Below are positions 25,332 through 49,154 of a stretch of DNA of 53,820 nt, piece by piece. The stretch comes from Gammaproteobacteria bacterium RIFCSPHIGHO2_12_FULL_38_11. GTDB lineage: Bacteria > Pseudomonadota > Gammaproteobacteria > Coxiellales > Coxiellaceae. The stretch lies in contig MGXX01000065.1 in assembly GCA_001801515.1 (NCBI GenBank), forward strand, positions 27,928-81,747. Reading direction: 5' to 3'. The position numbers and the translations under genes were made by a program. The notes under the pieces were generated by a model, which was not told the origin of the DNA, did not search any database, and worked only from the letters and a program-made list of their open reading frames with translations. Every line of letters starts with the position of its first letter. Position 1 is the stretch's first letter.

Positions 25332-25832
25332 TTAAATATTTACAAGCATCACATCAACACCATTATATTTTGGCAGTGGCACATTAATATCAAAACGAAG
25401 CGGTAAGGCACGTTGCGTAAAGCTTAAAATCACCGCAGTGGCTATTTTTTTCTGATCAAAATAGGCCTGCACAACATGCAATGCACATTCCAAACTTCCC
25501 TGCCCTATTACGTCCAAAAAATCAGCTTTGATATTATATTTTTCTAGCAAATAAGGTGCGAGATGCGAATACTGAGAATCATATTCATAAGCATTATGCG
25601 TAATCACACATAATTCAGTTTTATTTAATACCGATAGCAGTGTTTTATCTTCAATAATAGCAAGATCAATTAATTGTGGAAATGAATAACCTATGGTTTG
25701 TATCAGCATTTCTTTATCAAGATAACCCTTTGTTAAGCGATGCATGTCTTCAAAGTATTGTAGGTAATCTGCTTTTGGTTTTCGACAGAGTGGATCGGGA
25801 AACGTAAAATGAATTTTTTTTGAAATGTTCAT
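25332..25832 (-). CDS. Half-length KAS III-like (thiolase-fold) protein without Cys nucleophile
   Basis: A 166-residue protein resembling only the N-terminal half of a ketoacyl-ACP synthase III. The stretch after residue 110 (DFLDVIGQGSLECALHVVQ) corresponds to the active-site region of its neighbours, and a Ser falls where they have Cys115. The frame ends soon after, so the half carrying the catalytic His and third residue is missing. It also resembles the other Cys-less protein in the cluster (33420-34268). It is the last gene of the run, 20 bases after the preceding KAS-like gene and 3 bases from the convergent ATPase stop. It could be a non-catalytic partner, comparable in logic to a chain-length factor, or a gene truncated when the flank rearranged. 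Confidence 0.65.
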   Translation of the reverse strand: MNISKKIHFTFPDPLCRKPKADYLQYFEDMHRLTKGYLDKEMLIQTIGYSFPQLIDLAIIEDKTLLSVLNKTELCVITHNAYEYDSQYSHLAPYLLEKYNIKADFLDVIGQGSLECALHVVQAYFDQKKIATAVILSFTQRALPLRFDINVPLPKYNGVDVMLVNI

Positions 25833-25852
25833 TCTAAAGTTACCTCAATGTG

Positions 25853-26779
25853 CTAATAAATAAACACCGCAGCAGCCAAATAAAACCCCATACCACATCC
25901 TGTCATTAGATAATAATCACCTTTTTTTAAACGATTTTCTAATAAGGCTGAATGTAAATTAATAATATGATCAGAACAAAACGTATGTCCATATTTTGGA
26001 ATGTTGTCTAAATAAATTTTTTCAATAGAGAAATTCAATGCAATAGCTATTTTTCTCCATGTTGGTAAATTGACATTATGCGGCAATATTAAATTAATTT
26101 TATCCAGTGTGATTTTTGCTTTATTTAATGCATCACAAATAATTTCAAGCATGGATTGAATAAATTTTGAGTCAAATGTTTTTATCTCAGAATCCGACAA
26201 GTAAATTCCTTTTGCATAACCCGACATTAAATGATTAGAAATTGATAACATCTGATTATCAAACCCGTCGCAAGAAAGCAAAGACGCTGTTGCCGCATCA
26301 CCGACAATTGAAGAGCCAGGAACCACACGTAGTAACGGCGTAAATGCTACCTCTCCGGTTATTACAATTGCATAATAATCAGGATTATTCTTTAAAAGAA
26401 CTGTTAAAATTTCTAAAGCTTTAAAATAAGAAGCACATTTTTGCATTGTCATTTCAAATAAAATTGCAGAATTAAGTTTATATTTTTCTTTTAATATAGT
26501 CAGCAGTGAGTAACCAAAAGGGTGTAATATTGCCGTAGTATGCACAAAAATTAAATATTTAATTTTTGTTTTATCATGACAATAATCAAGTAATTTTTTT
26601 AGTGGAATTGTTATGAAAGACTGTAAATCACCCTGTTCTAAAACAGGAATAGTTTTTAATCCATAAATCATACTGTAAACAGACAGCATTGGTTTAGACA
26701 ATTGCGTTTCCTTTTCCAAATCCATTATTGCTATTCTGTTTTTTGGAATTTCAATTTCAATGTGATTAATGCTTAGCAA
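25853..26779 (-). CDS. KAS III-like condensing or acyl-transferring enzyme, Cys-His-His
   Basis: A 308-residue thiolase-fold protein related to ketoacyl-ACP synthase III (FabH). Cys115 lies in MTMQKCAS, close to FabH Cys112. PGSSIVGDAATASLL matches the family GDGA region, and LPHNVN supplies His234. The third active-site position, Asn in FabH (GNT), is His265 in KYGHT. The C-terminal glycine-rich strand is TGCGMGFYLAAAV. A Cys-His-His set is typical of KAS I/II, not KAS III, so a changed reaction such as acyl transfer or decarboxylative condensation with an unusual donor is possible. It is a paralogue of the gene at 29248-30177. Its start overlaps the end of the transglutaminase-like gene by 14 bases. 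Confidence 0.8.
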   Translation of the reverse strand: MLSINHIEIEIPKNRIAIMDLEKETQLSKPMLSVYSMIYGLKTIPVLEQGDLQSFITIPLKKLLDYCHDKTKIKYLIFVHTTAILHPFGYSLLTILKEKYKLNSAILFEMTMQKCASYFKALEILTVLLKNNPDYYAIVITGEVAFTPLLRVVPGSSIVGDAATASLLSCDGFDNQMLSISNHLMSGYAKGIYLSDSEIKTFDSKFIQSMLEIICDALNKAKITLDKINLILPHNVNLPTWRKIAIALNFSIEKIYLDNIPKYGHTFCSDHIINLHSALLENRLKKGDYYLMTGCGMGFYLAAAVFIY

Positions 26780-27644
26780 TGGATACCCACTTTGCAGTTA
26801 AAAAGGGATTATCAACTAAAACCTCACCCGGGACTGTCAAAATAAAATTACTTTCATAAAAATATTTTATTTTATCAACATCGTTTATATGATTGATTAA
26901 TAGGTCAGATAATCTGTCTAGCAAATCAAAATCAGTAATCACAGAACTGAGCATCGGTCCCCAAACATCCCAAATAAGTGTTTCTTGTTTATTGAGCAAA
27001 GCCAAATCCTGAATTAAACGATTACGCACGGTAAATAATCCACGATGCTGACGCGAACCAAATCGCACGGCTTCCGCATTTTCAAAACGACACATTTTCC
27101 AAGCTCTGGCGGCCGAAATAAATTTATTTTCAGGAACATCGTTTAAATCAAAATCAATCATTAATTTGTAATAGTCAATGTGTAATGGCATCGTTCGTGT
27201 ATCAACTAAACACCAACGACACAGCTTTTCATTATAATATTCAACACAATATCCATCTAAAAATAAGCCAGGAATGAAGTAACTCACAAAACCTGATCGA
27301 AGACGCGCTGGAATTGCGCGTGACCGCAAAACAGAACACAACAATAATGAGGTGTCTCGACATACACCCATTACACGATTTTCTATTGCGCGTACTTTTG
27401 TTAATTCAGAATTATCTTTATGCAACATGGCTTTTAGAATATTGTCAATCGTCCTTAAATTTAATTCAGCATAACGATCCTCAGAAACGGAAGTTGACAA
27501 TAAATCTAAATCTGCATAATGCAAAAATAGCTGCTGAACAATTTTAGACACATGAGGAATATCATTTGGAAAAGCATTGTAAAAAAAATGATGATCCTTT
27601 GGATTTGAGAAAGCACTTTGTGTTATATAATATTCATAATGCAT
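26766..27644 (-). CDS. Transglutaminase-fold protein, possible amide synthase
   Basis: A 292-residue protein with a transglutaminase-like core. Cys95 lies in GVCRDTSLLLCSVLRS, followed by GIPAR-like AIPARLRSGF and the Asp148 strand RWCLVDTRT. The usual catalytic His, expected as DHW..E, is replaced: the segment is LDGYCVEYY with Gly131 at that position. In andrimid biosynthesis the transglutaminase homologue AdmF forms an amide between two carrier-bound acyl groups, a precedent for this context. Whether this protein is active with the altered triad is unknown. The ATG at 27644 is chosen because AGGAAA lies just upstream; a longer frame exists, but its extra residues overlap the preceding gene deeply. 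Overlaps of 11 and 14 bases with its neighbours suggest translational coupling. Confidence 0.75.
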   Translation of the reverse strand: MHYEYYITQSAFSNPKDHHFFYNAFPNDIPHVSKIVQQLFLHYADLDLLSTSVSEDRYAELNLRTIDNILKAMLHKDNSELTKVRAIENRVMGVCRDTSLLLCSVLRSRAIPARLRSGFVSYFIPGLFLDGYCVEYYNEKLCRWCLVDTRTMPLHIDYYKLMIDFDLNDVPENKFISAARAWKMCRFENAEAVRFGSRQHRGLFTVRNRLIQDLALLNKQETLIWDVWGPMLSSVITDFDLLDRLSDLLINHINDVDKIKYFYESNFILTVPGEVLVDNPFLTAKWVSIAKH

Positions 27645-29178
27645 GATAGTTTTCCTGTAAAAGTTGATAATCAATTTTACCATTTGATAAATGGGGCAAA
27701 AACGCCACTGTAACAATTTTCTTTGGAATAGCTTCGCGAGATAAATGCGACAATAATTTTTTCTTCAATTGTGAAATATTGATTTTTTGTGTTGAAAATC
27801 CAACCAGTGATTGGATTAAATGATGTTGGTCATACTCTGGAATAACACAAATATCATGGCAATTTAGTACTGTTCGTAAAACAGATTCTACCTCATGCTT
27901 CTCAACGCGATGACCCTTTACTTGCCATTGATCATCAAAACGACCCTGAAATAAATATCCATATTCATCGTGATATGAAACACGATCACCGGTAAAATAG
28001 GACGTTAAATCTGATTCTGAATTATAACTAAACTTATCGGTTGTAAAAGACGGCCAGTATCCGTTTGACACTTGATCGCCTGAAATAATTAATTCACCAT
28101 TATTAGAAATGGCCAATTGTGTGTGTGGAAATGGCTTCCCAATAGGCAATGACATCATCCCGCTGTAATTATTTTCTTTTTGATATATGTGATAGGTACA
28201 ACTCACAGTTGCTTCAGTTGGACCGTATAAATTTACAATTAAAGTATTTTTGGCTTCTTTTTGCCAAAGTTGTGCAAACGAAACTGGGAAGGGCTCGCCA
28301 CAAAAAAATGTATTTCTTAATGAAAATAAATGGCCATGATAAAAATGACATTGATTAATGATTGCCGGCATAATTGAGGGTACTAAAATACAATGGGTAA
28401 TTTTATTTTTATAAATAAATTGTGACACACTCAATTCCTTTTCCTCGTTATAAACGTATAGCGTAGCACCTGAAATAAGACAAAGCACAATTTCATGTAT
28501 TGAAATATCAAAGGCAATATCTGACAGTTGAATGAAACGATCTTGTGCATTTATGTGAAACGTATGCAAAATATCGTTAACATAAGTAGATAGATTTTTA
28601 TGTGAAATGGGGACTGCCTTTGGTTTTCCAGTTGAACCGGAAGTAAAAAACATATAAGCATAATTTTCTTTTTTTATTTTACAATGATAAAAATTATTAT
28701 CAACACAAGATTTATTACGCGTCTTTTTTCTATTTGCAATATAACAAAAATTATTAGCTTCAAAAACTAATTTTAATTTGTTTTTATGTGACATTGTTAA
28801 ACATAAAATATCCTTATTTTTAACTTGCGAAAGTAAATTTAAAAGAACATCAGCTTTAGCGTCACCCAGAAATATAAAATAAGAGTCTAGTGTTTCCAAT
28901 ATTTTTTTGCTTTTTTCGATTCCCGATTGAATATTTAAAGGAATATAAACACTGTTTGAAAAAAAACAAGCGAGCATCCCCACATAAAAATTAATGGTTT
29001 TATCAGAAATTACAACACAAAATCTATTTTTGTCTTGGAATTTTAAAAATTGACGTGAAAGTGTAAACGCTTGACAAATAATTTCCCAATAGGTAAATGA
29101 TTTTTTGTCAACAATAATTGCTATGTTGTTTTTAAATTTGATTGCTGACGCAATTATTTTTTCAAAGAAGTCTGACAT
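27634..29178 (-). CDS. Stand-alone adenylation enzyme (amino-acid-type, AMP-forming)
   Basis: A 514-residue member of the ANL superfamily. Motif A3 is FFTSGSTGKPKAV, A5 is NLYGPTEATVS, A7 is YFTGDRVSYHDEYGY, A8 GRFDDQWQVKGHRVEKHEVE, and A10 LSNGKIDY with the catalytic Lys. The A4-like segment IAFDISIHEIV retains the Asp that in amino-acid-activating domains contacts the alpha-amino group, so an amino acid substrate is more likely than a fatty acid. It most resembles free-standing NRPS or D-alanine:carrier ligases. It probably loads the cluster's ACP, or a carrier elsewhere. The ATG at 29178 follows an AAGGGA ribosome site. A family B palindromic repeat separates it from the upstream KAS-like gene. 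Confidence 0.88.
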   Translation of the reverse strand: MSDFFEKIIASAIKFKNNIAIIVDKKSFTYWEIICQAFTLSRQFLKFQDKNRFCVVISDKTINFYVGMLACFFSNSVYIPLNIQSGIEKSKKILETLDSYFIFLGDAKADVLLNLLSQVKNKDILCLTMSHKNKLKLVFEANNFCYIANRKKTRNKSCVDNNFYHCKIKKENYAYMFFTSGSTGKPKAVPISHKNLSTYVNDILHTFHINAQDRFIQLSDIAFDISIHEIVLCLISGATLYVYNEEKELSVSQFIYKNKITHCILVPSIMPAIINQCHFYHGHLFSLRNTFFCGEPFPVSFAQLWQKEAKNTLIVNLYGPTEATVSCTYHIYQKENNYSGMMSLPIGKPFPHTQLAISNNGELIISGDQVSNGYWPSFTTDKFSYNSESDLTSYFTGDRVSYHDEYGYLFQGRFDDQWQVKGHRVEKHEVESVLRTVLNCHDICVIPEYDQHHLIQSLVGFSTQKINISQLKKKLLSHLSREAIPKKIVTVAFLPHLSNGKIDYQLLQENYHAL

Positions 29179-29209
29179 GGTGTTTCCCTTACATCGCAAG
29201 ATTCGCACG

Positions 29210-29238
29210 CAGGCTACCGCCCGCGTTTCGGTGCTATT
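29210..29238. repeat. Family B dispersed repeat inside the biosynthetic cluster
   Basis: A diverged single copy of the family B element (CGCACGCAGG...GCGTTTCGGTGCTA) lying in the only sizeable gap in the second half of the cluster. It may modulate RNA stability between the flanking genes. Confidence 0.65.
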
Positions 29239-29247
29239 TTATTATAT

Positions 29248-30177
29248 TCAATATTTAAACAGTCCTGCTGCAAACGTGGCACCTAAACCCATAGTCACCA
29301 GCAAATAATAATCACCTGGCATAATTCTTTGTTTTGCAATACCGTCTTTTAAATTGATAAATGGATCTGATCCAAAGCAATGCGCTGTCGTCGCAATATT
29401 GTCCAAATACACTTGTTCAGGAAAAAGCGATAATGCATGAATAAGCTGCTTCCAAGAAATTTTATTAACGTTATGAGGAAACACACACCTTATTTTTGAT
29501 ATAACAATATTATTTTTGCTTAAAATTTTATTAATCAGTGATGTCATATTTTTAATGTAAGTTGATTGAAATAACAATTGTTCGTTTTGATCTGCCCATA
29601 TTCCCTTCGCAAATTGGCCGTAAGATGCAAGTTCAGCGTCTAAAAATTGATGCAAGCAATCAGATTTTTTCAACAATATAGCTGTTGCCGCATCACCTAA
29701 TATTGTTGAACCCGGTATTGTTTGCAAAATAGGTGTAAATGTAATATCAACAACTAATATCAAAATTATATCCGTGCTACTTAGAGAGCAAAATAATTTT
29801 TCTGATATCGATAATAAATTAAATACACTTGCACATTTATGCAATGTAGATTCAAAATAAATCGCCTGAGTTATTTTCAACTGAAAAAGTATATTTTGAA
29901 TGTAATGAAATCCAAAAGGCTCAATGTAATCTGCTGTATGTGCAAATAAAACATACTTTATTGAGTCAAGGTCAAGGGGGTATTCATATATTAATTTTTG
30001 AATAAGCGTTAAAATCTGCTTTGAGATTGTCTGTAGATTATGTCGCGGAACAAAATGTAACCCCATCACACGTTCAAACACTTTTGCATCCACTTCAGTT
30101 ATTTCATCTCCATGAACCAGGTCATTAATGGTTAAACTATTTTCACCCAAAAGATATGTAATATGCGCTATATTCAT
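29248..30177 (-). CDS. KAS III-like condensing or acyl-transferring enzyme, Cys-His-His
   Basis: A 309-residue thiolase-fold protein, paralogous to the product of 25853-26779. Cys115 lies in STLHKCAS, PGSTILGDAATAILL is the GDGA-like region, FPHNVN gives His235, and the third position is His266 in TAHCFGSD, replacing the Asn of FabH. The C-terminal glycine-rich strand is VTMGLGATFAAG. Both paralogues keep a plausible Cys-His-His set and conserved flanks, so both are probably under selection for activity. They may act on different acyl units or form a heterodimer. The start ATG overlaps the stop of the ligase gene by one base (TAATG). Confidence 0.8.
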   Translation of the reverse strand: MNIAHITYLLGENSLTINDLVHGDEITEVDAKVFERVMGLHFVPRHNLQTISKQILTLIQKLIYEYPLDLDSIKYVLFAHTADYIEPFGFHYIQNILFQLKITQAIYFESTLHKCASVFNLLSISEKLFCSLSSTDIILILVVDITFTPILQTIPGSTILGDAATAILLKKSDCLHQFLDAELASYGQFAKGIWADQNEQLLFQSTYIKNMTSLINKILSKNNIVISKIRCVFPHNVNKISWKQLIHALSLFPEQVYLDNIATTAHCFGSDPFINLKDGIAKQRIMPGDYYLLVTMGLGATFAAGLFKY

Positions 30178-31697
30178 TAGTGATACACCAAAGAATTTTT
30201 TAAAGCCATATTTTCCAGAACGTGTTTGTTAAGCTTTCCATTAGACAAAGATGGAAATCGATCGCTAAAATAAATGTAATCAGGTTTTTGTGTTGATGGA
30301 AATTTTGAAAGTATAATCATTTTTAAATAATTAATATTACAATTAATTGAATCAGATTCAACACAAACGACTAATTTTTGATCATCAGGCTCATTTTTAT
30401 TAATAAAAATATAAGTGCGATTAATATGTGAAACATGTGACAACTTTTCAATATATTCATAGGTATTTAATTTAGCACCCTTATATTTTACAATAAAATC
30501 ATTTCTACCTTTAAAATAAAAATAACCATCCTCATCCATCACTGCACGATCACCTGATAATAATACTTTCTGACCATATTCATCAGTCGTTATTTTTTTT
30601 GCAGTCTCAATTGGATCATTCCAATAGCCCATCATCACCGTTGGGCCTGAAATAACTAAGTTTCCTTCAATATGCTTACCCAACAATTTACCATTGGAAT
30701 CTTGAATCCACATTTTTAAATTTGGCATCGGTATACCAATTGATCCAGTTTTTTTGTTTAACATTGAGTGTGGCACGTAACTGCAACGTTTACATTCTGT
30801 TAACCCATACATTGAAATTAATTTAGCTTTTGGAAAAATTTTATATATTTTTTCAATGTGTGTTAATGTAATATTTTCTCCTGTATTAGTAACTAATCTT
30901 AGCGATGAAAAATCATAAGCATATCGCTTTGAGGTAATATGAAATAATTGCACCATTAATGGAACACAAGGCAATATCGAAACACAATGTCGTGAAATTT
31001 TATTAGCAACTAAATTAGGAAATAATAAATTTTTTTCAAGAACCAGTGTTGCGCCACAATTAAATGCCAACAACATTTGATAGAGCCCATAATCAAAATG
31101 CATTGGAAGTACAGATAATATGACATCAGATGAATTCAGCGTTAAATAACTTGAAATAGATTCAATAGCTGCCAACACATTACGATGCGAAAGCATCACA
31201 CCCTTTGGAATCCCAGTGCTGCCTGATGTATGCATAATTATTGCAAGATCAGATTCTGTTGAAATATATTTTAGATCGTAAAAATCTAAATCAATACGAA
31301 TTCGCTCACACAATTCACTGATATACGGAACTTCAAAACTGACGATACAATTAAATTGCGCATCTGTAATGTTGTCAAAAACAACCATTTTAGGATTAAT
31401 ATTTTTTATAATTTCACTTAATGTTTGTTCATTCACTTCGTGATCAATAAGGCATGGCACCATGCCTGATAAAACAGTAGCCCAAAAAGCAATGACGGTT
31501 GCATACGTATTCGCACCCAATATAATAACGCGCCCAGCATTTTTTTCTATGGTTAAGCTCATGTGTTGCACTAAACGTAGACTATCTTCATATACAGACC
31601 AATAACTATATGTTTCATCTCCGATAATCAATGCTGTTTTCGTTTTATACGCATTAATTGTTTTTAAAAAAATATGGGGTAATAAATAATGCATCAT
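30177..31697 (-). CDS. AMP-forming acyl ligase, exosortase-A-cluster type
   Basis: A 506-residue ANL-superfamily ligase that should activate a carboxylic acid as an acyl-adenylate and pass it to CoA or the cluster's carrier protein. Motifs are HTSGSTGIPKGVMLSH (A3), MYGLTEC (A5), LLSGDRAVMDEDGYF (A7), GRNDFIVKYKGAKLNTYE (A8) and SNGKLNKHV (A10). The segment VLPMHFDYGLYQML and the GLTECKRCSYVP stretch resemble the acyl-CoA ligases that accompany PLP decarboxylases and carrier proteins in exosortase A clusters, matching its company here. GAGG upstream supports the first ATG. It starts 3 bases after the dehydrogenase gene and overlaps the next gene by one base. Confidence 0.88.
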   Translation of the reverse strand: MMHYLLPHIFLKTINAYKTKTALIIGDETYSYWSVYEDSLRLVQHMSLTIEKNAGRVIILGANTYATVIAFWATVLSGMVPCLIDHEVNEQTLSEIIKNINPKMVVFDNITDAQFNCIVSFEVPYISELCERIRIDLDFYDLKYISTESDLAIIMHTSGSTGIPKGVMLSHRNVLAAIESISSYLTLNSSDVILSVLPMHFDYGLYQMLLAFNCGATLVLEKNLLFPNLVANKISRHCVSILPCVPLMVQLFHITSKRYAYDFSSLRLVTNTGENITLTHIEKIYKIFPKAKLISMYGLTECKRCSYVPHSMLNKKTGSIGIPMPNLKMWIQDSNGKLLGKHIEGNLVISGPTVMMGYWNDPIETAKKITTDEYGQKVLLSGDRAVMDEDGYFYFKGRNDFIVKYKGAKLNTYEYIEKLSHVSHINRTYIFINKNEPDDQKLVVCVESDSINCNINYLKMIILSKFPSTQKPDYIYFSDRFPSLSNGKLNKHVLENMALKNSLVYH

Positions 31698-31700
31698 ATG

Positions 31701-32801
31701 TTATATGCCTCTTATTTGTTTTTTTTGAATATCAGTTGTGCCTTCCATATATTCCCAGCAATGCACATCGCGCAATGCTTTCAGCAACCAAGGGTTTTCT
31801 AGCAACGCATCCATTTTGCATAATGCGATACACGCGCTAATTACCTTTTCTGAAATTGCAGTTGCATTGGCCTTTGCTAATGATACATTCCGGCACAATA
31901 AAGCATTTTTATCTACTTCCGATGCAGCATTTTTTAACATCTGCCTGGAAACCTTTAGCAAAGAATTAAAATTGGCAAAAACAGATTTGAGTGATTTTAA
32001 ATTGGCTTTGTTAATCAAGAATGTAATATCACACACCGCTTGTGCCTGTCCAATCGCCAATGCACCAACACCTGTTCTCAATCGATTAAATACTTTTACA
32101 ATTCCTAAAAGGCCATTTTCGCAGGCTGAAAGATGATTTCCTAAAATCTGAGATTCTGGAATTTTGACATCATTGAATTTTACTAATGCTATTTGTGCAG
32201 ATTTCAATGCAAACATGGATAATGACGTTTTTTGGATATTTAAATTATTATTTAACAAATCAGGCGTCAACCAAACAGCGCGAATACCTAATGGCCCATC
32301 AAATAAGCGCGCTAAAACAATTCCCATATTTCCCACCGCACCATTTCCAAAAAAACACTTTGTCCCGTTTAAAAAATAATCGCTATCATGTTTATTTTTT
32401 TTAGTTAATCTTGTTTGAATATTATTTGCATCGGAACCTTTATTGGGTTCTGTTAATGCAAAAAACGTTCGAATTTTTTTAGACTGTAAAATTTTGTAGA
32501 AATAATCAATTTGATTTGGCAAACCCAATTCTCGTAACATCAAACCTGATAGAGAAGGTCCGGGGCATGCCAATAAAACACCAGGGTCACCGTATGAAAA
32601 TGCCTCTAAATAATGCGTACGTTCGACTGTAGTACTATTGCAGTCAGATAAAATAAAATTAACAGCCGGTAAATCAAGATAATTTAAAATTATATTAGGA
32701 TCTGCATCCACTTTGAAAGACAGTTCTCTAAAGCTTTTTGCGTAGGATGATAATTTTTCACCATAATAACGAGTAGCATTCATATCATTTTTCATAATCA
32801 A
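31701..32801 (-). CDS. Acyl-CoA/acyl-ACP dehydrogenase
   Basis: A 366-residue flavoprotein of the acyl-CoA dehydrogenase family. FALTEPNKGSDANN is the FAD/substrate signature (usually LTEPxAGSD), FLNGTKCFFGNG is the adjacent strand, and EYMEGTTDIQKKQI is the C-terminal motif carrying the catalytic-type Glu. It is slightly short at the N-terminus compared with the usual 380 residues. In prodiginine and pyoluteorin pathways such enzymes oxidise prolyl groups on a carrier protein, a precedent for ACP-bound desaturation here. Its start overlaps the stop of the truncated dehydrogenase-like gene (ATGA), implying a heteromeric or coordinated pair. Confidence 0.88.
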   Translation of the reverse strand: MIMKNDMNATRYYGEKLSSYAKSFRELSFKVDADPNIILNYLDLPAVNFILSDCNSTTVERTHYLEAFSYGDPGVLLACPGPSLSGLMLRELGLPNQIDYFYKILQSKKIRTFFALTEPNKGSDANNIQTRLTKKNKHDSDYFLNGTKCFFGNGAVGNMGIVLARLFDGPLGIRAVWLTPDLLNNNLNIQKTSLSMFALKSAQIALVKFNDVKIPESQILGNHLSACENGLLGIVKVFNRLRTGVGALAIGQAQAVCDITFLINKANLKSLKSVFANFNSLLKVSRQMLKNAASEVDKNALLCRNVSLAKANATAISEKVISACIALCKMDALLENPWLLKALRDVHCWEYMEGTTDIQKKQIRGI

Positions 32802-33448
32802 ACCTCGATAAACTTTTCAAATAATCTTATGAAAAAAAGAAATTCAATTGCATTATTTTTTAACACAGCACGTGCACCAGCCAAGCGTGACAAAATTACC
32901 AAAAGATTCATTAATTGTTTAAGCAGAAAGGAAATTTGATCAGTTTTTATTGATAGTTTAATCAATTGCTCGACACGACTTAATATAATCATACAATCTG
33001 AAAAATGCGATTGAACGACATCAAGGTTCACAATGCGCTTATTTTCATAATATCGGTTTGACAAATGTTCATGCGTATAAACCGCTATTTTTTTGCATGC
33101 AATAAAAATGTTGGCCACTATCTTATTAATGAATACTTCATATAAATTGGATTTATTTTTATTTGTAACATCAACGGTCAGTTGTGAAAGAAACATGCCT
33201 GCTTCATTTAAAAAAGAAAGCGGCATGGGTTTCAAGCATTTTACGGAGATGGCTGTCACACTAGATTTTGTCAAAAGAACAATATCATTTTCAAAATTAA
33301 TATTTTCTGAATGCATGATCAATCCTTTTGAGTTACCCAAGCCGAAAAAACTGTTATTATCAACAACCGCTACAGAAGACATATTAAAAACCTCTTGCCA
33401 CGAAATTTGACAATAATTTTCAGATTGAAATAAAACATCTTTTATCAT
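32798..33448 (-). CDS. Partial acyl-CoA dehydrogenase-like protein
   Basis: A 216-residue protein that resembles the middle beta domain and C-terminal helical domain of acyl-CoA dehydrogenases but has no N-terminal helical domain. The segment ACKKIAVYTHEHLSNRYYENKR followed by VVQSHFSD matches the helix where full-length enzymes read 'R..FG..I..FQ..Q..LAD'. The C-terminal YEGT motif is not seen. It probably forms a complex with the complete dehydrogenase encoded immediately downstream by an ATGA overlap, like the split subunits in heterotetrameric bacterial dehydrogenases. Start at 33448 is chosen over 33460 because it shortens the overlap with the preceding gene; no strong ribosome site is visible for either. 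Confidence 0.65.
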   Translation of the reverse strand: MIKDVLFQSENYCQISWQEVFNMSSVAVVDNNSFFGLGNSKGLIMHSENINFENDIVLLTKSSVTAISVKCLKPMPLSFLNEAGMFLSQLTVDVTNKNKSNLYEVFINKIVANIFIACKKIAVYTHEHLSNRYYENKRIVNLDVVQSHFSDCMIILSRVEQLIKLSIKTDQISFLLKQLMNLLVILSRLAGARAVLKNNAIEFLFFIRLFEKFIEV

Positions 33449-34268
33449 ATAAAAAACCATTTTGTTTTATTAATAATATTCCAGTCGAAAATAATGCATG
33501 ATCATGATCAACAATAAATATATAGTTAAATTTAATTCTATTCTTAAATATAAAGTCTAAGCAGTAATAGACAAACCCAGAGCTGATCGGATAAAAAATA
33601 ACATTCCACGAAGTAAGAACATTAAAATTATCTTTATGTTTTACGTAAACAATAAAATCATTTATATTCATAGAAAAAGCATTTATCATGGATTTTATTT
33701 TTTCAATGTATTGTTTGTTAGAGATGACTTCACACAAAACCACCTTTACAAATTGTTTTGAATTGCATTTAGAAACGGTAGAAAGTGATGCCACAAAATT
33801 AATTTCTGGTGCAACAGGTTTATTTTTGCTTAATTTAAATAACCAAGCATTTTCAATTGAACAACATAACGCTTTACTAATCGAATTTGAATTATACAAT
33901 TTTAACAATGTGTTTAAGGCGTAAAACACGCATAGTAATCCACATCCTTTGACATCAAGAAAAGCGGCATGAATATTAAATTTGTTTTTCAAATACAATT
34001 CTGGTGCAGAATAATCCATATTCCACGTGACCCCCCAAGAGGGCAACAAAACCATGTCAACTTGATCAAATTTGTTGTTTTTTACTAATTTATTCATCAA
34101 TATTGTTCCCATCAAATCATAGCGATATACAAATTGTGATGAATCATAATTTAGGTTAACGTTATAAAGCTTATATAAATCATTTAAATACGCCTTTACA
34201 ACATCAGAAACAGGTTGTTTTTTGATATTTTTAAAGGCGGTTTGGAAAATAACTGAATCAATGATCAT
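33420..34268 (-). CDS. Degenerate KAS III-like (thiolase-fold) protein
   Basis: A 282-residue protein, recognised as thiolase-like only through its match to the cluster paralogues. HAAFLDVKGCGLLCVFYAL aligns with the active-site helix of the other KAS-like proteins, but Leu occupies the nucleophile position. Near the C-terminus YVKHKDNFNV may replace the His loop, and the glycine-rich terminal strand is lost (IVDHDHALFSTGILLI). It shares most with the half-length protein at 25332-25832. A scaffold or chain-length-factor-like role is plausible but unproven. It is very AT-rich. The ATG at 34268, 10 bases before the ACP stop, is preferred to the longer frame that starts deeper inside the ACP gene. 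Confidence 0.6.
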   Translation of the reverse strand: MIIDSVIFQTAFKNIKKQPVSDVVKAYLNDLYKLYNVNLNYDSSQFVYRYDLMGTILMNKLVKNNKFDQVDMVLLPSWGVTWNMDYSAPELYLKNKFNIHAAFLDVKGCGLLCVFYALNTLLKLYNSNSISKALCCSIENAWLFKLSKNKPVAPEINFVASLSTVSKCNSKQFVKVVLCEVISNKQYIEKIKSMINAFSMNINDFIVYVKHKDNFNVLTSWNVIFYPISSGFVYYCLDFIFKNRIKFNYIFIVDHDHALFSTGILLIKQNGFLYDKRCFISI

Positions 34269-34527
34269 GTCTGTCTCGCAATAAAACTTGCATATCAACA
34301 TAATTGATTACTGATGAAACCGTTTCTAAATCGCGCATTTCAATTGTTTCAGGATCAACAAAAAATCCTTCAATGGATTCTTCTAGACGCATTAAAAACA
34401 TTAACGAACTCATTGAATCTAATTGCAGATCTTCTTTTAAATAAGCATTTGAATTAATACACAGGTTATTGGACAAATTTAATGTTGATGCTAATGCATT
34501 TTTAACAAGTTGTTCCGTATTTTGCAT
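34258..34527 (-). CDS. Acyl carrier protein
   Basis: An 89-residue acyl carrier protein. The phosphopantetheine attachment Ser38 is in LQLDSMSSL, preceded by acidic helix residues and followed by helix II FLMRLEESIEGFFVDPE, in line with the family fold. It probably carries the intermediates handled by the ligases, decarboxylase, dehydrogenases and KS-like proteins of this run. AAGGAG sits 6 bases before the ATG at 34527, a near-ideal ribosome site, which excludes the longer frame beginning at 34563. It lies 26 bases after the decarboxylase gene. A phosphopantetheinyl transferase is not present in the window, so the host's general enzyme would have to load it. Confidence 0.93.
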   Translation of the reverse strand: MQNTEQLVKNALASTLNLSNNLCINSNAYLKEDLQLDSMSSLMFLMRLEESIEGFFVDPETIEMRDLETVSSVINYVDMQVLLRDRHDH

Positions 34528-34553
34528 CGTAGTCTCCTTGGTTGGGTTTAGGT

Positions 34554-35843
34554 TTATATGCATACTTGCTTGAAAGTTTCTGTGGCATTGATATTTTGTG
34601 TTAACAATAAGTCATCGATTGTTTCGCGACGTCGAATCAGTTTCAGTTTTTTATTTTCATAAATTACTTCAGCAGGTGAGCCATGGCTCAAAAATTTTCC
34701 TGGAGACGCCGTTAATCCATACGCACCAGAATTTTTAATAATAATTAAATCACCGACAGTAACATTTTTTAGTTCAATATTTTTCAGCAGTACATCACAA
34801 GGCGTACACAATGGTCCTGTCACCTGATATTTTTTTTTACTTATACTGTTTTTTAATTTATTTTCTGAAATATGAAAAAATGGAAAATTACGATGAATAA
34901 ACGACCCTAATCCCGTTGTCGCCATATGACAATGCAGGCCTGCATCAACGATTAAATAATTCTTTTCGTGGTTAGACTTTACTGATTGTATTGATGCAAT
35001 AAGAAAGCCTGATTCAGCTACCAAATAGCGGCCCAATTCTAAAATAAATTGTGTTGATTGTCGCAATAGCTTATAGCATTTTAATAATGCATTAATATCA
35101 TTTATTAATTTTAAATGATTTAATTTTTTTTCACCCTGAAAATAAGGGACACCAAAGCCACCCCCAATATCAATCACATTAAAATCAATTTTTAGCTTTT
35201 CAGAAAGTGAATCTGCTAGTATTAGTATATTTTTTATGTTTTCTATTATTGCATTTTCATCTAATACACGACTTGCATTAAAAATTTGTATCCCATCAAA
35301 CAAAATAAATTCACATTGTTGTATTTCATTAAAGCGAGCAGTAAATTCTGTTATTTCAATACCAAACTGTGATGAAACGCCACTCATTTTAATTGGTGCA
35401 TTTTTCATAAAAAAATCAGGATTAATACGTGCTAGAATCGATGTTTTTGCTTTATGCTTTTTTGATAGCACATCAACTAGGCTTATTTCAGTGATTGACT
35501 CGCAAACAATGTGCCTAATTTTCATTTGTATCGCAAACTCAATTTCATCTGGTTTTTTTGCAGGCCCTACAAAGATAATTTGTGAAGGCTTAAATCCTGA
35601 TTTAAGTGCAATAACCAGTTCGTTTTTTGATGAAATTTCACAATTTGCACCCAATGAAGCAAGGTATTTACAAACTTCTAAACTTGGATTTGCTTTAATT
35701 GAATAAAAAACACTACAACTGGGCGATAGGTTTTTTTGTAATTGCGCATATTTTTCTTTAATCGTTTCCATAAAATACAAAAACACCGGCGTGCCAAAAT
35801 GCGCAGCCGTTTTTATTAAAATATTATTTGTTAACATTTTCAT
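34554..35843 (-). CDS. PLP-dependent decarboxylase, BtrK/exosortase-associated type
   Basis: A 429-residue fold-type III decarboxylase related to diaminopimelate and ornithine decarboxylases. The PLP Schiff-base Lys50 is in FYSIKANPS, the phosphate-binding loop is DIGGGFGVPY, ELGRYLVAESG contributes the next active-site strand, and CTPCDVL carries the substrate-side Cys. MSGVSSQFGIE and the NSGAYG loop resemble BtrK of butirosin biosynthesis, which decarboxylates glutamate bound to a carrier protein, and the decarboxylases of exosortase A clusters. The next gene is an ACP, so an aminoacyl-ACP substrate is a reasonable inference. ATG at 35843 is chosen because GGAAG lies 7 bases upstream; an earlier ATG at 35864 lacks a ribosome site. 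It opens the biosynthetic run. Confidence 0.88.
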   Translation of the reverse strand: MKMLTNNILIKTAAHFGTPVFLYFMETIKEKYAQLQKNLSPSCSVFYSIKANPSLEVCKYLASLGANCEISSKNELVIALKSGFKPSQIIFVGPAKKPDEIEFAIQMKIRHIVCESITEISLVDVLSKKHKAKTSILARINPDFFMKNAPIKMSGVSSQFGIEITEFTARFNEIQQCEFILFDGIQIFNASRVLDENAIIENIKNILILADSLSEKLKIDFNVIDIGGGFGVPYFQGEKKLNHLKLINDINALLKCYKLLRQSTQFILELGRYLVAESGFLIASIQSVKSNHEKNYLIVDAGLHCHMATTGLGSFIHRNFPFFHISENKLKNSISKKKYQVTGPLCTPCDVLLKNIELKNVTVGDLIIIKNSGAYGLTASPGKFLSHGSPAEVIYENKKLKLIRRRETIDDLLLTQNINATETFKQVCI

Positions 35844-35868: not shown

Positions 35869-36279
35869 TTAGCGATGAATCAATTTTCCATTAATTACTT
35901 TTCCATCGACAGAAGAGGTGACACTGACAATCACCTCCCCAGCTGGCCCTTGAAAATCAGCATTTCCTTTTATCTTTGAGTTATGACACAATTTAATTTT
36001 TTCTGCTGTTGCACTATTTTCAGTAACTGAATCAAATATCGAATCATCTGATCTCATTGGTCCACTGACCGTTGCTGTACCAGTAAAGGTGGAGCGCATT
36101 GCACGAAATGGACCGTGCACAACAATATTTTTAATGTACACACCCCTGCACCAGGTGGGTCCATCATAAATTTGCGTATGCGGTTCATGAAAACCCAATA
36201 CGATACATTGGTCCTCTGCTAATGCACCTTGCATTAAAAATGCTGAAAATAAAGCGAAAGCTATTACACGTGATTTCAT
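35869..36279 (-). CDS. Small secreted protein, possible polymer-forming beta-helix
   Basis: A 136-residue protein with a clear Sec signal peptide (IAFALFSAFLMQGALAE, cleavage near residue 21). The mature part has short repeating strands such as GTATVSGPMRSDDSIF, ENSATAEKIKLCHNSKIKGNADF and GKVINGKLI, reminiscent of bactofilin-like or other small beta-helical proteins. Three Cys residues could form disulfides in the periplasm. No precise family can be assigned. It ends 25 bases before the decarboxylase start and on the same strand, so it could be cotranscribed with the biosynthetic run, but a functional link is not shown. Upstream are 154 bases with an A-tract and a family B repeat. Confidence 0.75.
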   Translation of the reverse strand: MKSRVIAFALFSAFLMQGALAEDQCIVLGFHEPHTQIYDGPTWCRGVYIKNIVVHGPFRAMRSTFTGTATVSGPMRSDDSIFDSVTENSATAEKIKLCHNSKIKGNADFQGPAGEVIVSVTSSVDGKVINGKLIHR

Positions 36280-39889: not shown

Positions 39890-40933
39890 ATGAATGAAAT
39901 TGATTTTACAGCGTTATGCAGCAACATCAAAGCCTGGGCGCTTGATTTGGGCTTTGCGCAAATGGGCATTACAGATTGCGATATAGGGGATGCTGACGAA
40001 CGATTGCAAGCATGGCTTGCTAAGGGATACCACGGGGCAATGCATTACATGGGAAATAATCGCGAATTAAGAAAAAATCCTGAAAAATTACATCCAGGGA
40101 CATTACGCATTATTTCAGTTCGCATGGATTATTTAATTGAAAATCACAATACACTTCAAATACTAGAAAATAGAAACAAAGCAGCCATTTCACGTTATGC
40201 ATTGGGGCGCGATTATCATAAAGTGATGCGAAAGAAATTAAATATATTAGCGAAAAAAATAAATGATATTGTTCCGCATGGTTATCGTGCCTTCACAGAC
40301 AGCGCACCTGTTTTTGAACGTAAAATAGCAGAAAAAGCAGGTATTGGATGGATCGGCAAAAATACGATGATCATGAATAAGCAAGCTGGCTCTTTCTTTT
40401 TTCTCGGTGAATTATTTACAAATTTACCACTACCGCTTGATAAACCCGTTGAAGCCCATTGCGGTTCATGCACCGCTTGCATTGATATTTGCCCGACAAA
40501 AGCCATTGTTGCGCCGTATCAAATTGATGCTAGGCGTTGTATTTCTTATTTAACAATTGAACATAAGGGCTCAATTGATCCTAAACTACGGCCTTTAATG
40601 GGCAATCGAATTTATGGCTGTGATGATTGTCAATTATTTTGTCCTTGGAATAAATTTGCAAAATTCACCCCAGAAAAAGATTTTCAACCACGTCATAATT
40701 TAAAAGATGTCGATTTAATTGAATTGTTTTCATGGAGTGAAAAGGAATTTTTAGAAAAAACAGAAGGCTCAGCCATTCGCAGAGCGGGTTATATTTCATG
40801 GTTGAGAAACATTGCGATTGCATTAGGGAACGCAGAAAAATCGGAGGCCGTGATTTCAGCCTTGAAATCACGGGAAAATCATGACTCAAACATTGTCCGA
40901 GAACATGTTGCTTGGGCGCTTTCAGTAGTATAA
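39890..40933 (+). CDS. queG: Epoxyqueuosine reductase
   Basis: Cobalamin- and iron-sulfur-dependent enzyme of the last step of queuosine formation in tRNA. The 347-residue protein has the N-terminal cobalamin-binding/active-site region (YHGAMHYM, AISRYALGRDYH, FTDSAPVFER with the conserved Asp, GWIGKN) and two [4Fe-4S] clusters in CGSCTACIDICPTKA and CDDCQLFCPW. A HEAT-like C-terminal extension ends at residue 347. The 3' end overlaps by 55 bases a convergent hypothetical gene. Confidence 0.96.
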   Translation: MNEIDFTALCSNIKAWALDLGFAQMGITDCDIGDADERLQAWLAKGYHGAMHYMGNNRELRKNPEKLHPGTLRIISVRMDYLIENHNTLQILENRNKAAISRYALGRDYHKVMRKKLNILAKKINDIVPHGYRAFTDSAPVFERKIAEKAGIGWIGKNTMIMNKQAGSFFFLGELFTNLPLPLDKPVEAHCGSCTACIDICPTKAIVAPYQIDARRCISYLTIEHKGSIDPKLRPLMGNRIYGCDDCQLFCPWNKFAKFTPEKDFQPRHNLKDVDLIELFSWSEKEFLEKTEGSAIRRAGYISWLRNIAIALGNAEKSEAVISALKSRENHDSNIVREHVAWALSVV

Positions 40934-41364
40934 GTTTGTCCTTCTGCAGCACGGTACGGATCATGTACATGGGGCGGCACTGTGTAAGGTTCTGTGTAAG
41001 GTTCTGTGTAAGGTTCTGTGTAAGGTTCTTGAAAGAATGAAAATTGTCTGGTTAGGCTGTATTGATGATACGCGTGTTCAAAAACATAAAAAATTTCCTT
41101 TTGATACGAATGATAGCCAATGGTTTTACTCAAATCAATTATTCTCGATAAAGCATCGTCATTAGCGATAGTCGCAAATGCGTATATTTTTGAGTTAAAC
41201 TGCGGTTTATAAATGCAAAGACGACGAACACAATCTTCTTTAGCAAGCATATTTAACATTCTTGTTACAGAGTCAACGGTATCCCTACGTGAAAGTTGTC
41301 CTATAAAAAGATTATCTCTTCTAAAATGACTGTTTTCTTGTGCATCTTCAGTAAAGCGGGACAT
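40879..41364 (-). CDS. Hypothetical protein with a Pro-Tyr-Thr-Glu repeat tail
   Basis: A 161-residue protein of unknown function. The N-terminal 110 residues look like a folded, mainly helical domain (LSRRDTVDSVTRMLNMLAKE, SRIIDLSKTIGYHSYQKEIF). They are followed by four EPYT units and a polar tail. The ATG at 41364 has GAGGAG seven bases upstream, a strong argument that the gene is real; a longer frame would run into tsaD. Its last 55 bases overlap the end of queG on the other strand, unusual for a conserved gene. No signal peptide or membrane helix. The proline-rich, Tyr/Thr-rich tail could be an interaction motif. It lies directly after tsaD. Confidence 0.65.
   Translation of the reverse strand: MSRFTEDAQENSHFRRDNLFIGQLSRRDTVDSVTRMLNMLAKEDCVRRLCIYKPQFNSKIYAFATIANDDALSRIIDLSKTIGYHSYQKEIFYVFEHAYHQYSLTRQFSFFQEPYTEPYTEPYTEPYTVPPHVHDPYRAAEGQTYTTESAQATCSRTMFES
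40981..41028 (-). repeat. Four exact 12-bp tandem repeats
   Basis: The plus-strand unit TGTGTAAGGTTC is repeated four times without interruption. On the minus strand it encodes Glu-Pro-Tyr-Thr in the tail of the hypothetical protein. Because the unit is a multiple of three, slippage would change tail length without frameshift. Confidence 0.92.
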
Positions 41365-41375
41365 ATTACCACTCC

Positions 41376-42389
41376 TCAAACAGTTGAAATTAACCAACGC
41401 GCTTTCACATCCGTATTAAATGAATCATTTTTTCCTTCTGATAAACGCAAAAAACCATTATATGCGACCATTGCCGCATTGTCAGTACAAAATTCACGAC
41501 GCGGAAAAAATATTTTAATGCCCCGCTTTATTAATTTATGCGCGTGATCACGCAGTTTTTCATTCGCAGAAACACCCCCTGCAATTACCAATTGATCGCT
41601 TTGCATTTCTGCTAATGCCCGTTCAGATTTTTTCATAAGCGTTTCAATAACGGCGTCCTCAAATGAACAGGCAATATCTGCTTTTGTTTGATCAGTTTTA
41701 TCAGATTGCGCAAATGCCTGCATAGCGGCTGTTTTTAATCCACTGAAACTAAAGGCTAAACCAGGACGATTTAACATGGGTCGCGGAAAATGAAATCGTT
41801 TTGCATTTCCCTGTAATGCCAATTTTGCCAGTGCTGGACCACCTGGGTAACCCAAGTCAATTAATTTCGCGGTTTTATCAAATGCTTCACCAGCCGCATC
41901 ATCCAATGATTCACCCAAAACACGATAATCACCGTATTTTTCGGCATAAAGTAACATTGTATGGCCACCAGAAACCAAAAGTGTAACAAAAGGATAGGTT
42001 GGTTTTTCTTTTTCTAACATCACGGCCATGATATGCGATTCTAAATGGTGCACACCGATTGAGGGTACTTGCCATGCAAACGCTAAACTTTTTGCAAGTG
42101 AAGCACCCACCATTAAGGCGCCGATTAATCCAGGACCACGCGTATAAGCAACACCCGTGATATCTTTTTTTGATAAATTCAATTGATTTAGTAATTGCTG
42201 TATTAAAGGTAATAATTTTTGAATATGATCGCGTGATGCTAGCTCAGGAACAACGCCACCGTATTGTTTGTGCAAATCCATTTGCGTATGAACTAATTGA
42301 CCAAGCAAGCCTGCTTTTTCATCATAAATAGCCACAGCTGTTTCATCACAGGATGTTTCGATTCCTAGAATGCGCATAAATTTTGCCAC
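41376..42389 (-). CDS. tsaD: tRNA N6-threonylcarbamoyladenosine transferase TsaD
   Basis: The catalytic Kae1/TsaD subunit that transfers threonylcarbamoyl to A37 of ANN-decoding tRNAs. Length is 337 residues as expected. The ASKHA-type ATP/metal site is visible: ETSCDET at the N-terminus, the metal ligands in VHHLESHIMAV, LVSGGHTMLLY, FDKTAKLIDLGYPGG, and the C-terminal VIAGGVSANEKLR and FCTDNAAMVAY with the third metal ligand Asp. It works with TsaB and with TsaE encoded nearby. The stop is 11 bases from the next gene on the same strand. Confidence 0.97.
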   Translation of the reverse strand: MAKFMRILGIETSCDETAVAIYDEKAGLLGQLVHTQMDLHKQYGGVVPELASRDHIQKLLPLIQQLLNQLNLSKKDITGVAYTRGPGLIGALMVGASLAKSLAFAWQVPSIGVHHLESHIMAVMLEKEKPTYPFVTLLVSGGHTMLLYAEKYGDYRVLGESLDDAAGEAFDKTAKLIDLGYPGGPALAKLALQGNAKRFHFPRPMLNRPGLAFSFSGLKTAAMQAFAQSDKTDQTKADIACSFEDAVIETLMKKSERALAEMQSDQLVIAGGVSANEKLRDHAHKLIKRGIKIFFPRREFCTDNAAMVAYNGFLRLSEGKNDSFNTDVKARWLISTV

Positions 42390-47709: not shown

Positions 47710-48252
47710 ATGACAAAAACACGGATAGGTTTTTCAATACTCAGCTTCGGAATAGTGATATCTACGCAGGTAATCGCAGACTCAAAGCCAACCGGAACTG
47801 TTTTAACCTGCCCACAATCCATCGTCTGCACGCATAAAAGTTGTGATCTTTCACACGCACCAAAAGGCTGGAAGGTGTCTGAAACTTATTCTTACATGCC
47901 AAGAATAAAAACCAAGCTGTATTTTCTTTATTTTATGTTTGATCATTTTCCTTATCCGATTGGCGATACTGGCGCAAAAACAAACCCTTACCCAATTAAA
48001 TGCTTCTATGGCATTAACTGGTTAATTGAACGCCCCACTGTTTCCCTTGTTCCAGCGTCAGCATCAACGGTATTTCATCGTGTTCATCTGAACCCTGATT
48101 TTTGGGATCGTCATAAGTGCTCAGGTTTAGTAAATAATGCCAGTCATCCAGGGGTTGCCGCTAATTGTCCGATTGAACAAATAAATCCCCCCGGTTTTGC
48201 TGGCGCAAAACCGACCCCATTTTTCAAAGGGGGTGATCAAGCCCGCAATTAA
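47710..48252 (+). CDS. Small secreted hypothetical protein with repeat-derived C-terminus
   Basis: A 180-residue protein with a signal peptide (FSILSFGIVISTQVIA, cleavage near residue 23). The mature part has about six Cys residues (for example LTCPQSIVCTHKSCDL) and aromatic segments, suggesting a disulfide-bonded periplasmic or surface protein; the family is not recognised. The last 20 or so residues (PPGFAGAKPTPFFKGGDQ) are encoded by a family A palindromic repeat, so the original C-terminus was probably shorter or has been replaced. GGAGGA 4 bases before the ATG is a strong ribosome site, and TATAAT at 47683-47688 is a likely -10 box. Its stop codon overlaps the convergent DUF2797 gene by 4 bases. 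Confidence 0.75.
   Translation: MTKTRIGFSILSFGIVISTQVIADSKPTGTVLTCPQSIVCTHKSCDLSHAPKGWKVSETYSYMPRIKTKLYFLYFMFDHFPYPIGDTGAKTNPYPIKCFYGINWLIERPTVSLVPASASTVFHRVHLNPDFWDRHKCSGLVNNASHPGVAANCPIEQINPPGFAGAKPTPFFKGGDQARN
48193..48239 (+). repeat. Family A dispersed repeat in the secreted-protein gene
   Basis: Contains two nested inverted repeats, GGTTTTGC-tgg-CGCAAAACC and CCCC-attTTTCAAA-GGGG, and ends TGATCA like the copy after nudE. It is translated in frame at the C-terminus. Confidence 0.85.
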
Positions 48253-49145: not shown

Positions 49146-49154
49146 TTGCTTTAC

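What the first reader, a model, noticed from the sequence alone, without database searches (positions are those of the whole stretch)
25332..35843. Compact eleven-gene ACP-based biosynthetic cluster with no obvious known equivalent
Seen: eleven same-strand, AT-rich genes with overlaps of 1-29 bases or gaps mostly below 30, encoding a PLP decarboxylase, ACP, two AMP-forming ligases, two acyl-CoA dehydrogenase-like proteins, four thiolase-fold KAS III-like proteins and a transglutaminase-fold protein. Known: BtrK acts on a carrier-bound amino acid, AdmF (transglutaminase fold) joins carrier-bound units, and dehydrogenases of this family oxidise carrier-bound prolyl groups. Inference: a small amide- or amine-containing metabolite is built on one free-standing ACP without modular PKS or NRPS. 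There is no thioesterase, dedicated transporter or phosphopantetheinyl transferase in the run.
Basis: partly seen in the sequence, partly recalled or inferred. Interest (0 to 1): 0.9.

Follow-up and report, generated by a model that had tools for sequence, protein, structure and literature searches.

The report
Compact carrier-protein enamide gene cluster
Eleven neighbouring genes in an uncultured relative of Coxiella appear to build a small amide-type metabolite on one free-standing carrier protein, by the logic of two recently studied Burkholderia lipopeptide pathways but with parts of its own, and the product is unknown.

Summary
In detail: eleven same-strand, AT-rich genes (31.6% vs 37.9% GC) at 25332-35843, with overlaps of 1-29 bases and gaps of 3-69. 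The set is a real unit: it recurs, largely in the same order, in six other genomes of one order that holds a Coxiellaceae-labelled MAG. In one of them the second ligase and the transglutaminase-fold protein are one gene. 'No known equivalent' does not hold. The core (VinN-type ligase, free-standing ACP, BtrK-type decarboxylase, acyl-CoA-dehydrogenase-type enzyme, KAS III-like enzymes) is that proposed for dehydro-beta-alanine (enamide) formation in bolagladin and AFC-BC11, and relatives lie on plasmids of Rahnella, Agrobacterium vitis, Tritonibacter and others. Best reading: aspartate is loaded by its side-chain carboxyl, decarboxylated on the ACP to beta-alanine, N-aminoacylated (glycine-like), desaturated to an enamide, and released by a KAS III-like acyltransferase. 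New here: the compact NRPS-free form, an AlmE-like ligase coupled to a transglutaminase-fold protein without the presumed catalytic histidine, a probable half acyl-CoA dehydrogenase, degenerate thiolase-fold partners, and a co-occurring secreted-type protein upstream. New variant of a known kind; substrates and product are inferred.

The parts
35869..36279 (-). orf136: secreted-type 136-aa protein (signal-peptide-like start, my reading), 25 bases upstream of g01; probable twelfth gene of the locus
   Evidence: Homolog upstream of g01 in 5 of 6 related loci; in the order search 5 of 36 genomes have it, all among the 6 cluster carriers, none of the other 30. No Pfam family.
34554..35843 (-). g01: BtrK/VinO-type PLP decarboxylase, predicted to act on an ACP-bound acidic amino acid
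   Evidence: PDB best match BtrK 2j66 E 2.7e-78; S[IML]KANP and GPLCTP motifs kept in 7 of 7.
34258..34527 (-). g02: free-standing acyl carrier protein, 89 aa from the ortholog-supported start (longest ORF to 34563)
   Evidence: DSM motif with the carrier serine in 7 of 7.
33420..34268 (-). g03: degenerate thiolase-fold protein without invariant Cys or His; probable non-catalytic partner
32798..33448 (-). g04: probable C-terminal half of an acyl-CoA dehydrogenase, possible partner of g05
   Evidence: Fold search points to the ACAD superfamily but weakly; 202-225-aa counterparts in related clusters match PF00441 in 4 of 5, two above cut-off; hhalign to these 30.7%, to g05 0.1%.
31701..32801 (-). 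g05: acyl-CoA-dehydrogenase-type enzyme, predicted beta-aminoacyl-ACP desaturase
   Evidence: PF02770/PF00441 above cut-off; Glu353 (catalytic base by recalled motif) invariant in 7 of 7; a g05-type domain is fused to a g01-type decarboxylase in 3 plasmid clusters.
30177..31697 (-). g06: VinN-type ligase, predicted to load the side-chain carboxyl of Asp (or Glu) on the ACP
   Evidence: 3wvn/3wv4 (VinN, identified by recall and by residue numbering) is the best PDB match with a single matched stretch; VinN Asp230/Ser299/Arg331 = D202/T272/R304, invariant in 7 of 7; code DYYPTTMRC vs VinN DFYPTSMRI.
29248..30177 (-). g07: KAS III-like acyltransferase/condensing enzyme (Cys115, His235, His266)
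   Evidence: C115, H235, H266 invariant in 12 of 12 g07/g10-type proteins; FabH Asn position is His.
27634..29178 (-). g08: AlmE/VinM-like amino acid ligase, predicted substrate glycine or another small amino acid
   Evidence: PDB best match 4oxi E 5.7e-62 (AlmE by recall); code DIHIFCLVS vs DLHLFCLIA; one gene with g09 in L041.
26766..27644 (-). g09: transglutaminase-fold protein, Cys95 and Asp148 kept, presumed catalytic His position Gly
   Evidence: Family of 43 proteins, the window's own included; His absent in 6 of 6 cluster members; fused to g08 in L041.
25853..26779 (-). g10: second KAS III-like enzyme
   Evidence: As g07.
25332..25832 (-). g11: truncated thiolase-like protein (N-terminal half)
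   Evidence: 284/288 aa in L031 and L041; 166, 185 and 163 aa in the window, L001 and L002.

Best explanation
A compact biosynthetic locus, kept at one chromosomal place, for a small enamide-type metabolite assembled on one free-standing ACP. g06 activates the side-chain carboxyl of aspartate and loads it on g02; g01 removes the alpha-carboxyl of the ACP-bound residue, giving beta-alanyl-ACP; g08, working with the transglutaminase-fold g09, adds a small amino acid (glycine-like) to the freed amine; g05 (with g04) desaturates the N-acylated beta-alanyl thioester to dehydro-beta-alanine; a KAS III-like enzyme (g07, g10, with degenerate partners g03, g11) takes the chain on its Cys and releases it to a nucleophile, as AfcL does. 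Shown here: gene content, synteny, conserved active-site and specificity residues, the fold of g03 and (weakly) g04, gene fusions. Inferred: substrates, order of steps, partnerships, product.
For: g01 is closest to BtrK among solved structures. g06 carries the residues named for VinN, one as Thr for Ser, in 7 of 7 orthologs and a near-VinN code. Bolagladin: BolO (VinN-like), BolC (ACP), BolN (BtrK-like), BolM/BolP (KAS III-like), BolQ (ACAD; deletion gives beta-alanine in place of the dehydro residue) (PMC7756342 passages). AFC-BC11: sole carrier AfcK, VinN-type AfcQ, decarboxylase AfcP acting on the loaded carrier in vitro, KAS III-like AfcL forming an amide, no classical NRPS (PMC12186527). 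g01-type and g05-type enzymes are fused in three plasmid clusters, adjacent in A. vitis, and in the same cluster in Rahnella and Streptomyces. VinM activates Ala/Ser/Gly and amidates the decarboxylated ACP-bound residue (PMC11284099 passages); g08 has an AlmE-like code and is fused to the transglutaminase-fold protein in L041. Asp/Glu racemase gene inside the L042 cluster.
Against: No product or activity is known. BolQ, AfcE, VinO and BtrJ sequences were not held, so orthology to them is untested. The loci that may be afc (L063, L065) are only distantly similar: decarboxylase about 20-24% over part of its length, no g05 match at E 1e-2 in the fetched stretch. Nothing in the run looks like a fatty acyl ligase or an NRPS, so the N-acyl group must differ from both models. 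L003 lacks g08, g10 and g11. In the tree g08 is only a deep sister of the other ligases of the plasmid clusters. AfcL/O are described with a Cys/His/Asp triad; g07/g10 have Asn at the residue three after His235 and His at the FabH Asn site.
Confidence: 0.58

Rival explanations
1. Same logic with glutamate: gamma-glutamyl-ACP is decarboxylated to GABA-ACP (as in butirosin) and desaturated to a 4-aminocrotonyl unit.
For: g01's nearest solved relative is BtrK, which uses glutamyl-ACP; the Ser299 position of VinN is Thr in g06; the racemase in L042 fits Glu as well as Asp.
Against: g06 is nearest to VinN among solved structures and its code differs from VinN's at 3 of 9 positions only; BolO, likened to VinN, is proposed to use Asp.
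Confidence: 0.2
2. A C-C bond-forming pathway: the KAS III-like enzymes condense the ACP-bound aminoacyl chain with malonyl or another thioester to give an amino ketone, and the dehydrogenase acts on that product.
For: Cys/His/His in place of Cys/His/Asn is the triad of elongating KAS I/II (recalled); PqsBC, a pair of an active and an inactive subunit (recalled), is among the VIA rows for g03.
Against: The same Cys and His are in 13 of 13 proteins of A9 and in 8 of 8 further ones from Burkholderia and A. vitis loci; in AFC-BC11 a KAS III-like enzyme forms an amide. No ketoreductase or malonyl loader was seen in the run.
Confidence: 0.13
3. An envelope-modification pathway: aminoacyl groups are put on a lipid or polysaccharide, as in Alm or perhaps in exosortase-A loci.
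For: g08 is AlmE-like; g01 and g06 hit the exosortase-A-associated families TIGR03099 and TIGR03098; a secreted-type protein is linked to the locus.
Against: Both TIGR hits are far below cut-off (340 vs 478 and 267 vs 592 bits); no AlmG-type acyltransferase among the cluster genes by Pfam; a dehydrogenase in the cluster and RND pumps in two relatives fit a small exported molecule better.
Confidence: 0.09

Closest known systems
AFC-BC11 pathway (Burkholderia cepacia complex; afc cluster)
   Same: One carrier protein, VinN-type ligase, PLP decarboxylase on the loaded carrier, ACAD-type desaturase (AfcE, proposed), KAS III-like amide-forming release, no classical NRPS (PMC12186527, passages and section 8).
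   Different: 25 genes with a fatty acyl-AMP ligase, citrate synthase, methyltransferase and several oxidoreductases; no transglutaminase-fold protein named in what I read. The loci that may be afc resemble the window only distantly.
Bolagladin dehydro-beta-alanine sub-pathway (BolO/C/N/M/P/Q)
   Same: Enzyme types match: ligase, ACP, decarboxylase, two KAS III-like enzymes, ACAD (PMC7756342, passages).
   Different: Feeds an NRPS; citrate-primed fatty acyl chain; KAS Cys replaced by Ser/Thr there, kept here.
Vicenistatin-type beta-amino acid starter enzymes (VinN, VinL, VinO, VinM)
   Same: Two ligases around one ACP and a decarboxylase; VinM amidates with Ala/Ser/Gly (PMC11284099, passages).
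   Different: No VinK transferase or type I PKS seen in the run; desaturase and KAS III-like enzymes instead.
Plasmid clusters of Rahnella, A. vitis, Tritonibacter, Gemmobacter, Rhizobium pMK-3, Streptomyces decoyicus (products not known to me; one paper search)
   Same: Decarboxylase, ACAD, ACP, KAS with the same Cys and His, and a g03-like protein in five of the six; g06-type ligase in all but Streptomyces.
   Different: Carry P450s, alpha/beta hydrolases, extra ACPs or ligases in various combinations; no g09 relative in five by blastp or in A. vitis by tblastn.

Membership tests
Dehydro-beta-alanine (enamide) carrier pathway | VinN-type ligase with Asp230/Ser299/Arg331 recognition residues | tested here: met
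   D202, T272 (Ser to Thr), R304 in 7 of 7.
Dehydro-beta-alanine (enamide) carrier pathway | Free-standing carrier protein | tested here: met
   g02, DSM motif 7 of 7.
Dehydro-beta-alanine (enamide) carrier pathway | BtrK-type decarboxylase | tested here: met
Dehydro-beta-alanine (enamide) carrier pathway | ACAD-type desaturase | tested here: met
   Family and Glu353 met; orthology to BolQ/AfcE not tested, sequences not held.
Dehydro-beta-alanine (enamide) carrier pathway | KAS III-like acyltransferase with Cys and His | tested here: met
Dehydro-beta-alanine (enamide) carrier pathway | Product contains dehydro-beta-alanine | not testable with these tools
   No product known.
AFC-BC11 pathway proper | Citrate synthase, methyltransferase and fatty acyl-AMP ligase genes | tested here: not met
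   No citrate synthase or methyltransferase among the eleven genes (a weak TIGR04325 hit of g01 at E 0.011 is far below cut-off); both ligases are nearest to amino acid ligases in the PDB. Not filed as a member of afc.
AdmF-type transglutaminase amide synthase | Cys-His-Asp triad | tested here: not met
   Cys and Asp kept; His position Gly or Ala in 6 of 6 cluster proteins. AdmF's triad is recalled and the His position is read from an alignment.
Vicenistatin-type starter pathway | VinK-type acyltransferase and type I PKS | tested here: not met
   No such family among the eleven genes.
AlmEFG glycine transfer to lipid A | AlmE-like specificity residues | tested here: met
   5 of 9 code positions identical.
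AlmEFG glycine transfer to lipid A | AlmG lipid A transferase | tested here: not met
   No Pfam acyltransferase of that kind among the eleven genes.
Exosortase-A-associated ligase/decarboxylase | Scores above TIGR03098/TIGR03099 cut-offs | tested here: not met
   An exosortase gene was not looked for.
Heteromeric acyl-CoA dehydrogenase (g04+g05) | Second subunit with ACAD fold | tested here: inconclusive

The most novel reading that the evidence does not exclude
The cluster is an NRPS-free assembly line with a new kind of amide synthase: an AlmE-like ligase hands its aminoacyl group to the Cys of a transglutaminase-fold protein that has lost the catalytic His, which acylates the amine of the ACP-bound beta-alanine; the desaturase and both KAS III-like enzymes work as heteromers with degenerate partners (g04, g03, g11), and the linked secreted-type protein handles the exported enamide.
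Probability: 0.25. Interest if true: 0.78.

Novelty: new variant of a known kind. Interest (0 to 1): 0.6.

Why it matters
Carrier-protein pathways that make peptide bonds without NRPS condensation domains are a young field: the AFC-BC11 paper is dated 2025. This locus is a small version kept at one chromosomal place in several related genomes of 1.4-2.1 Mb, a group for which the listings of my literature searches showed no described cluster of this kind. It gives a compact set for reconstituting the chemistry and for asking what a transglutaminase fold without its presumed catalytic His does. It also ties together plasmid clusters in cultured bacteria such as Rahnella and Agrobacterium vitis, where a product can be looked for directly.

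Tried and rejected
AdmF-type catalysis for g09: His not conserved. Stand-alone transglutaminase relatives as evidence of wider clusters: of 28 plasmid records I opened four; the listed neighbours in Rhizobium, Vibrio tritonius and Microvirga show no ACP or AMP-ligase (PLSDB gene tables are incomplete), Vibrio sp. THAF190c has no annotation. Exosortase-A membership: below cut-offs. g04 against g05 by hhalign: 0.1%, but the counterparts of which four match PF00441 also failed against g05 (0.1%), so that test is uninformative. Viral-contig scan with one transglutaminase-fold protein: none. PDB profile search with g03/g11: none. Solanimycin: its residues are given as dehydro-alpha-alanine, so not a model (passages of PMC10204066). 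Promoter and terminator scan: about what shuffles give (63 vs 66.0 with sd 7.8; 8 vs 5.7 with sd 2.7), so co-transcription is inferred from spacing only. Protein searches with g04 and g03 found 1 and 2 proteins, the window's own included.
Full report
Observation. The run of eleven minus-strand genes is real. I call them g01 (upstream, decarboxylase) to g11 (downstream, 166 aa). With starts supported by orthologs, spacings are +26, -11, -29, -4, +3, -1, +69, -11, -14 and +20 bases. GC is 31.6% inside and 37.9% elsewhere in the window. The cluster sits between a AAA_14 ATPase gene next to mutS on one side and orf136, mutL and an amiC-type amidase gene on the other (mutS, mutL and amiC are my reading of the sequence).

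It is a conserved unit. A genome scan with an alignment of the transglutaminase-fold family (43 proteins found; 17 aligned) gave 32 loci. Of the 11 loci that I printed, four (L001, L002, L003, L031) carry the cluster; six others show no cluster gene besides g09, and L027 (a Legionella-labelled MAG) only weak ligase matches on the other strand; the remaining 21 were not printed. Searching the 36 genomes of the order of G001 found the transglutaminase-fold gene in 7 and the KAS family in 6, which added L041 and L042; the seventh, G027, has g09 at the edge of a 7,175-base contig. All six carriers are in one order, which holds G002, a MAG titled Coxiellaceae. An even draw of 369 genomes of the class gave one hit, G001 itself. 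By blastp at E 1e-3, g01, g02, g05, g06 and g09 are in 6 of 6 loci, g08 in 5 of 6 (not L003), two KAS III-like genes in 4 of 6 and one each in L003 and L042, g04 in 5 of 6 (by position only in L042), g03 in 4 of 6 (by position only in L031 and L042), g11 in 4 of 6 (the g03-position gene of L042 also matches it weakly). In L041, g08 and g09 are one 798-aa gene. g11 is 284 and 288 aa in L031 and L041 but 166, 185 and 163 aa in the window, L001 and L002, so it is truncated there. L042 has three extra genes inside the cluster.

Chromosomal place and a twelfth gene. amiC or mutL lies upstream in L001, L002, L003, L031 and L041 as in the window, which suggests vertical inheritance or exchange at one site; the stretch held for L042 begins 607 bases before g01 and cannot tell. 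A 136-aa protein gene lies just upstream of g01 in 5 of 6 loci and is found in 5 of 36 genomes of the order, all among the six carriers. I take it as part of the locus; its function is unknown.

Loading and decarboxylation. g01's best solved relative is BtrK (E 2.7e-78; diaminopimelate decarboxylases from 2e-50). BtrK and VinO act on carrier-bound acidic amino acids (passages of PMC7857480 and PMC11284099). g06's best solved match with a single matched stretch is 3wvn (292 bits; the next such protein 223 bits), which I identify as VinN from recall; the residues named for VinN in PMC7756342 (Asp230, Ser299, Arg331) fit that chain with one constant offset of 16 and fall on D202, T272 and R304 of g06, invariant in 7 of 7 orthologs; the g06-type ligases of four plasmid clusters have D, T and R there too. 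The nine-position code is DYYPTTMRC against DFYPTSMRI. The carrier g02 keeps its DSM serine in 7 of 7. This makes an acidic amino acid loaded by its side-chain carboxyl the most likely first unit; Asp over Glu is inference. An Asp/Glu racemase gene (PF01177, E 1.2e-29) lies inside the cluster of L042.

Second ligase and the transglutaminase-fold protein. g08's best solved match is 4oxi (E 5.7e-62), AlmE from recall. [quoted passage not shown] VinM, which activates Ala, Ser and Gly, forms an amide on the decarboxylated ACP-bound residue. g09 keeps Cys95 and Asp148, but the position that is His in 5 of 6 other relatives compared is Gly or Ala in 6 of 6 cluster proteins; in the wider set of 17, whose contexts I mostly do not know, it is His in 2. 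One His-bearing relative (L045) in turn lacks the Cys. Reading that position as the catalytic His rests on spacing and on those relatives, not on a structure. The g08-g09 fusion suggests that the two act together.

What is known. Bolagladin (passages read): Asp proposed to be loaded on a free-standing ACP, decarboxylated, N-acylated, and desaturated by BolQ. AFC-BC11 (passages and section 8): a sole carrier, VinN-type AfcQ, AfcP, AfcE (proposed), KAS III-like AfcL making the releasing amide, no classical NRPS. The window's core has these enzyme types, so it works like them. It is not filed as a member of either named pathway: the acyl-chain genes are missing, and g09 and the AlmE-like g08 are extra. 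Two Burkholderia loci that may be afc (L063, L065) are only distantly similar; a third (L064) has decarboxylase, ligase, ACAD and two KAS homologs. All three are unannotated in the collection, so the afc identity is a guess. g10 matches 27 plasmid records in all; I opened nine cluster regions.

Searches for prior description: no paper with all five terms; 4 papers listed; by title and abstract start none on such a cluster; 15 of 4,145 listed; titles and abstract starts only; 10 of 11 listed. These cover open-licence papers only; I read none of those papers.

Remaining doubt. The product, the order of steps and the substrate of every enzyme are inferred. g03 and g04 have few detectable relatives, and g11 may be decaying in the window. 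Exporters: RND genes inside L042 and beside L003, an MFS gene beside L041; none sought further in the window. PPTase: a PF01648 match in 4 of 6 carrier genomes, on contigs other than the cluster's.

Noticed in passing
35869-36279: A secreted-type 136-aa protein with no Pfam family co-occurs with the cluster (5 of 36 genomes of the order, all among the six carriers) and lies upstream of g01 in the five loci that have it.
   Followed up: partly
L042:6190-13573: In this relative an RND membrane-fusion protein, an RND pump and an Asp/Glu racemase lie between the cluster genes; L003 has an RND pump next door.
   Followed up: partly
L059:9947-12385, L060:9986-12460, L062:10001-12424: Fused PLP-decarboxylase/acyl-CoA-dehydrogenase proteins of 807-824 aa on plasmids, in clusters with ACPs and AMP-forming ligases.
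   Followed up: partly
L064:9109-19283: An unannotated Burkholderia cenocepacia stretch with ACAD, two KAS-like genes, a g06-type ligase and a BtrK-type decarboxylase.
   Followed up: partly
7101-14864: A 2587-aa protein with leucine-rich-repeat matches and a sub-cut-off AAA match in Pfam, in an AT-rich stretch, next to a MATE-like transporter gene (my reading).
   Followed up: partly
48249-49160 and 49080-49415: A repeat with a unit of about 14 residues inside a DUF2797 gene, and a similar-looking repeat in an overlapping ORF on the other strand.
   Followed up: no
40879-41397: A run of TEPY-type four-residue repeats in a small ORF beside a tsaD-like gene (my reading).
   Followed up: no
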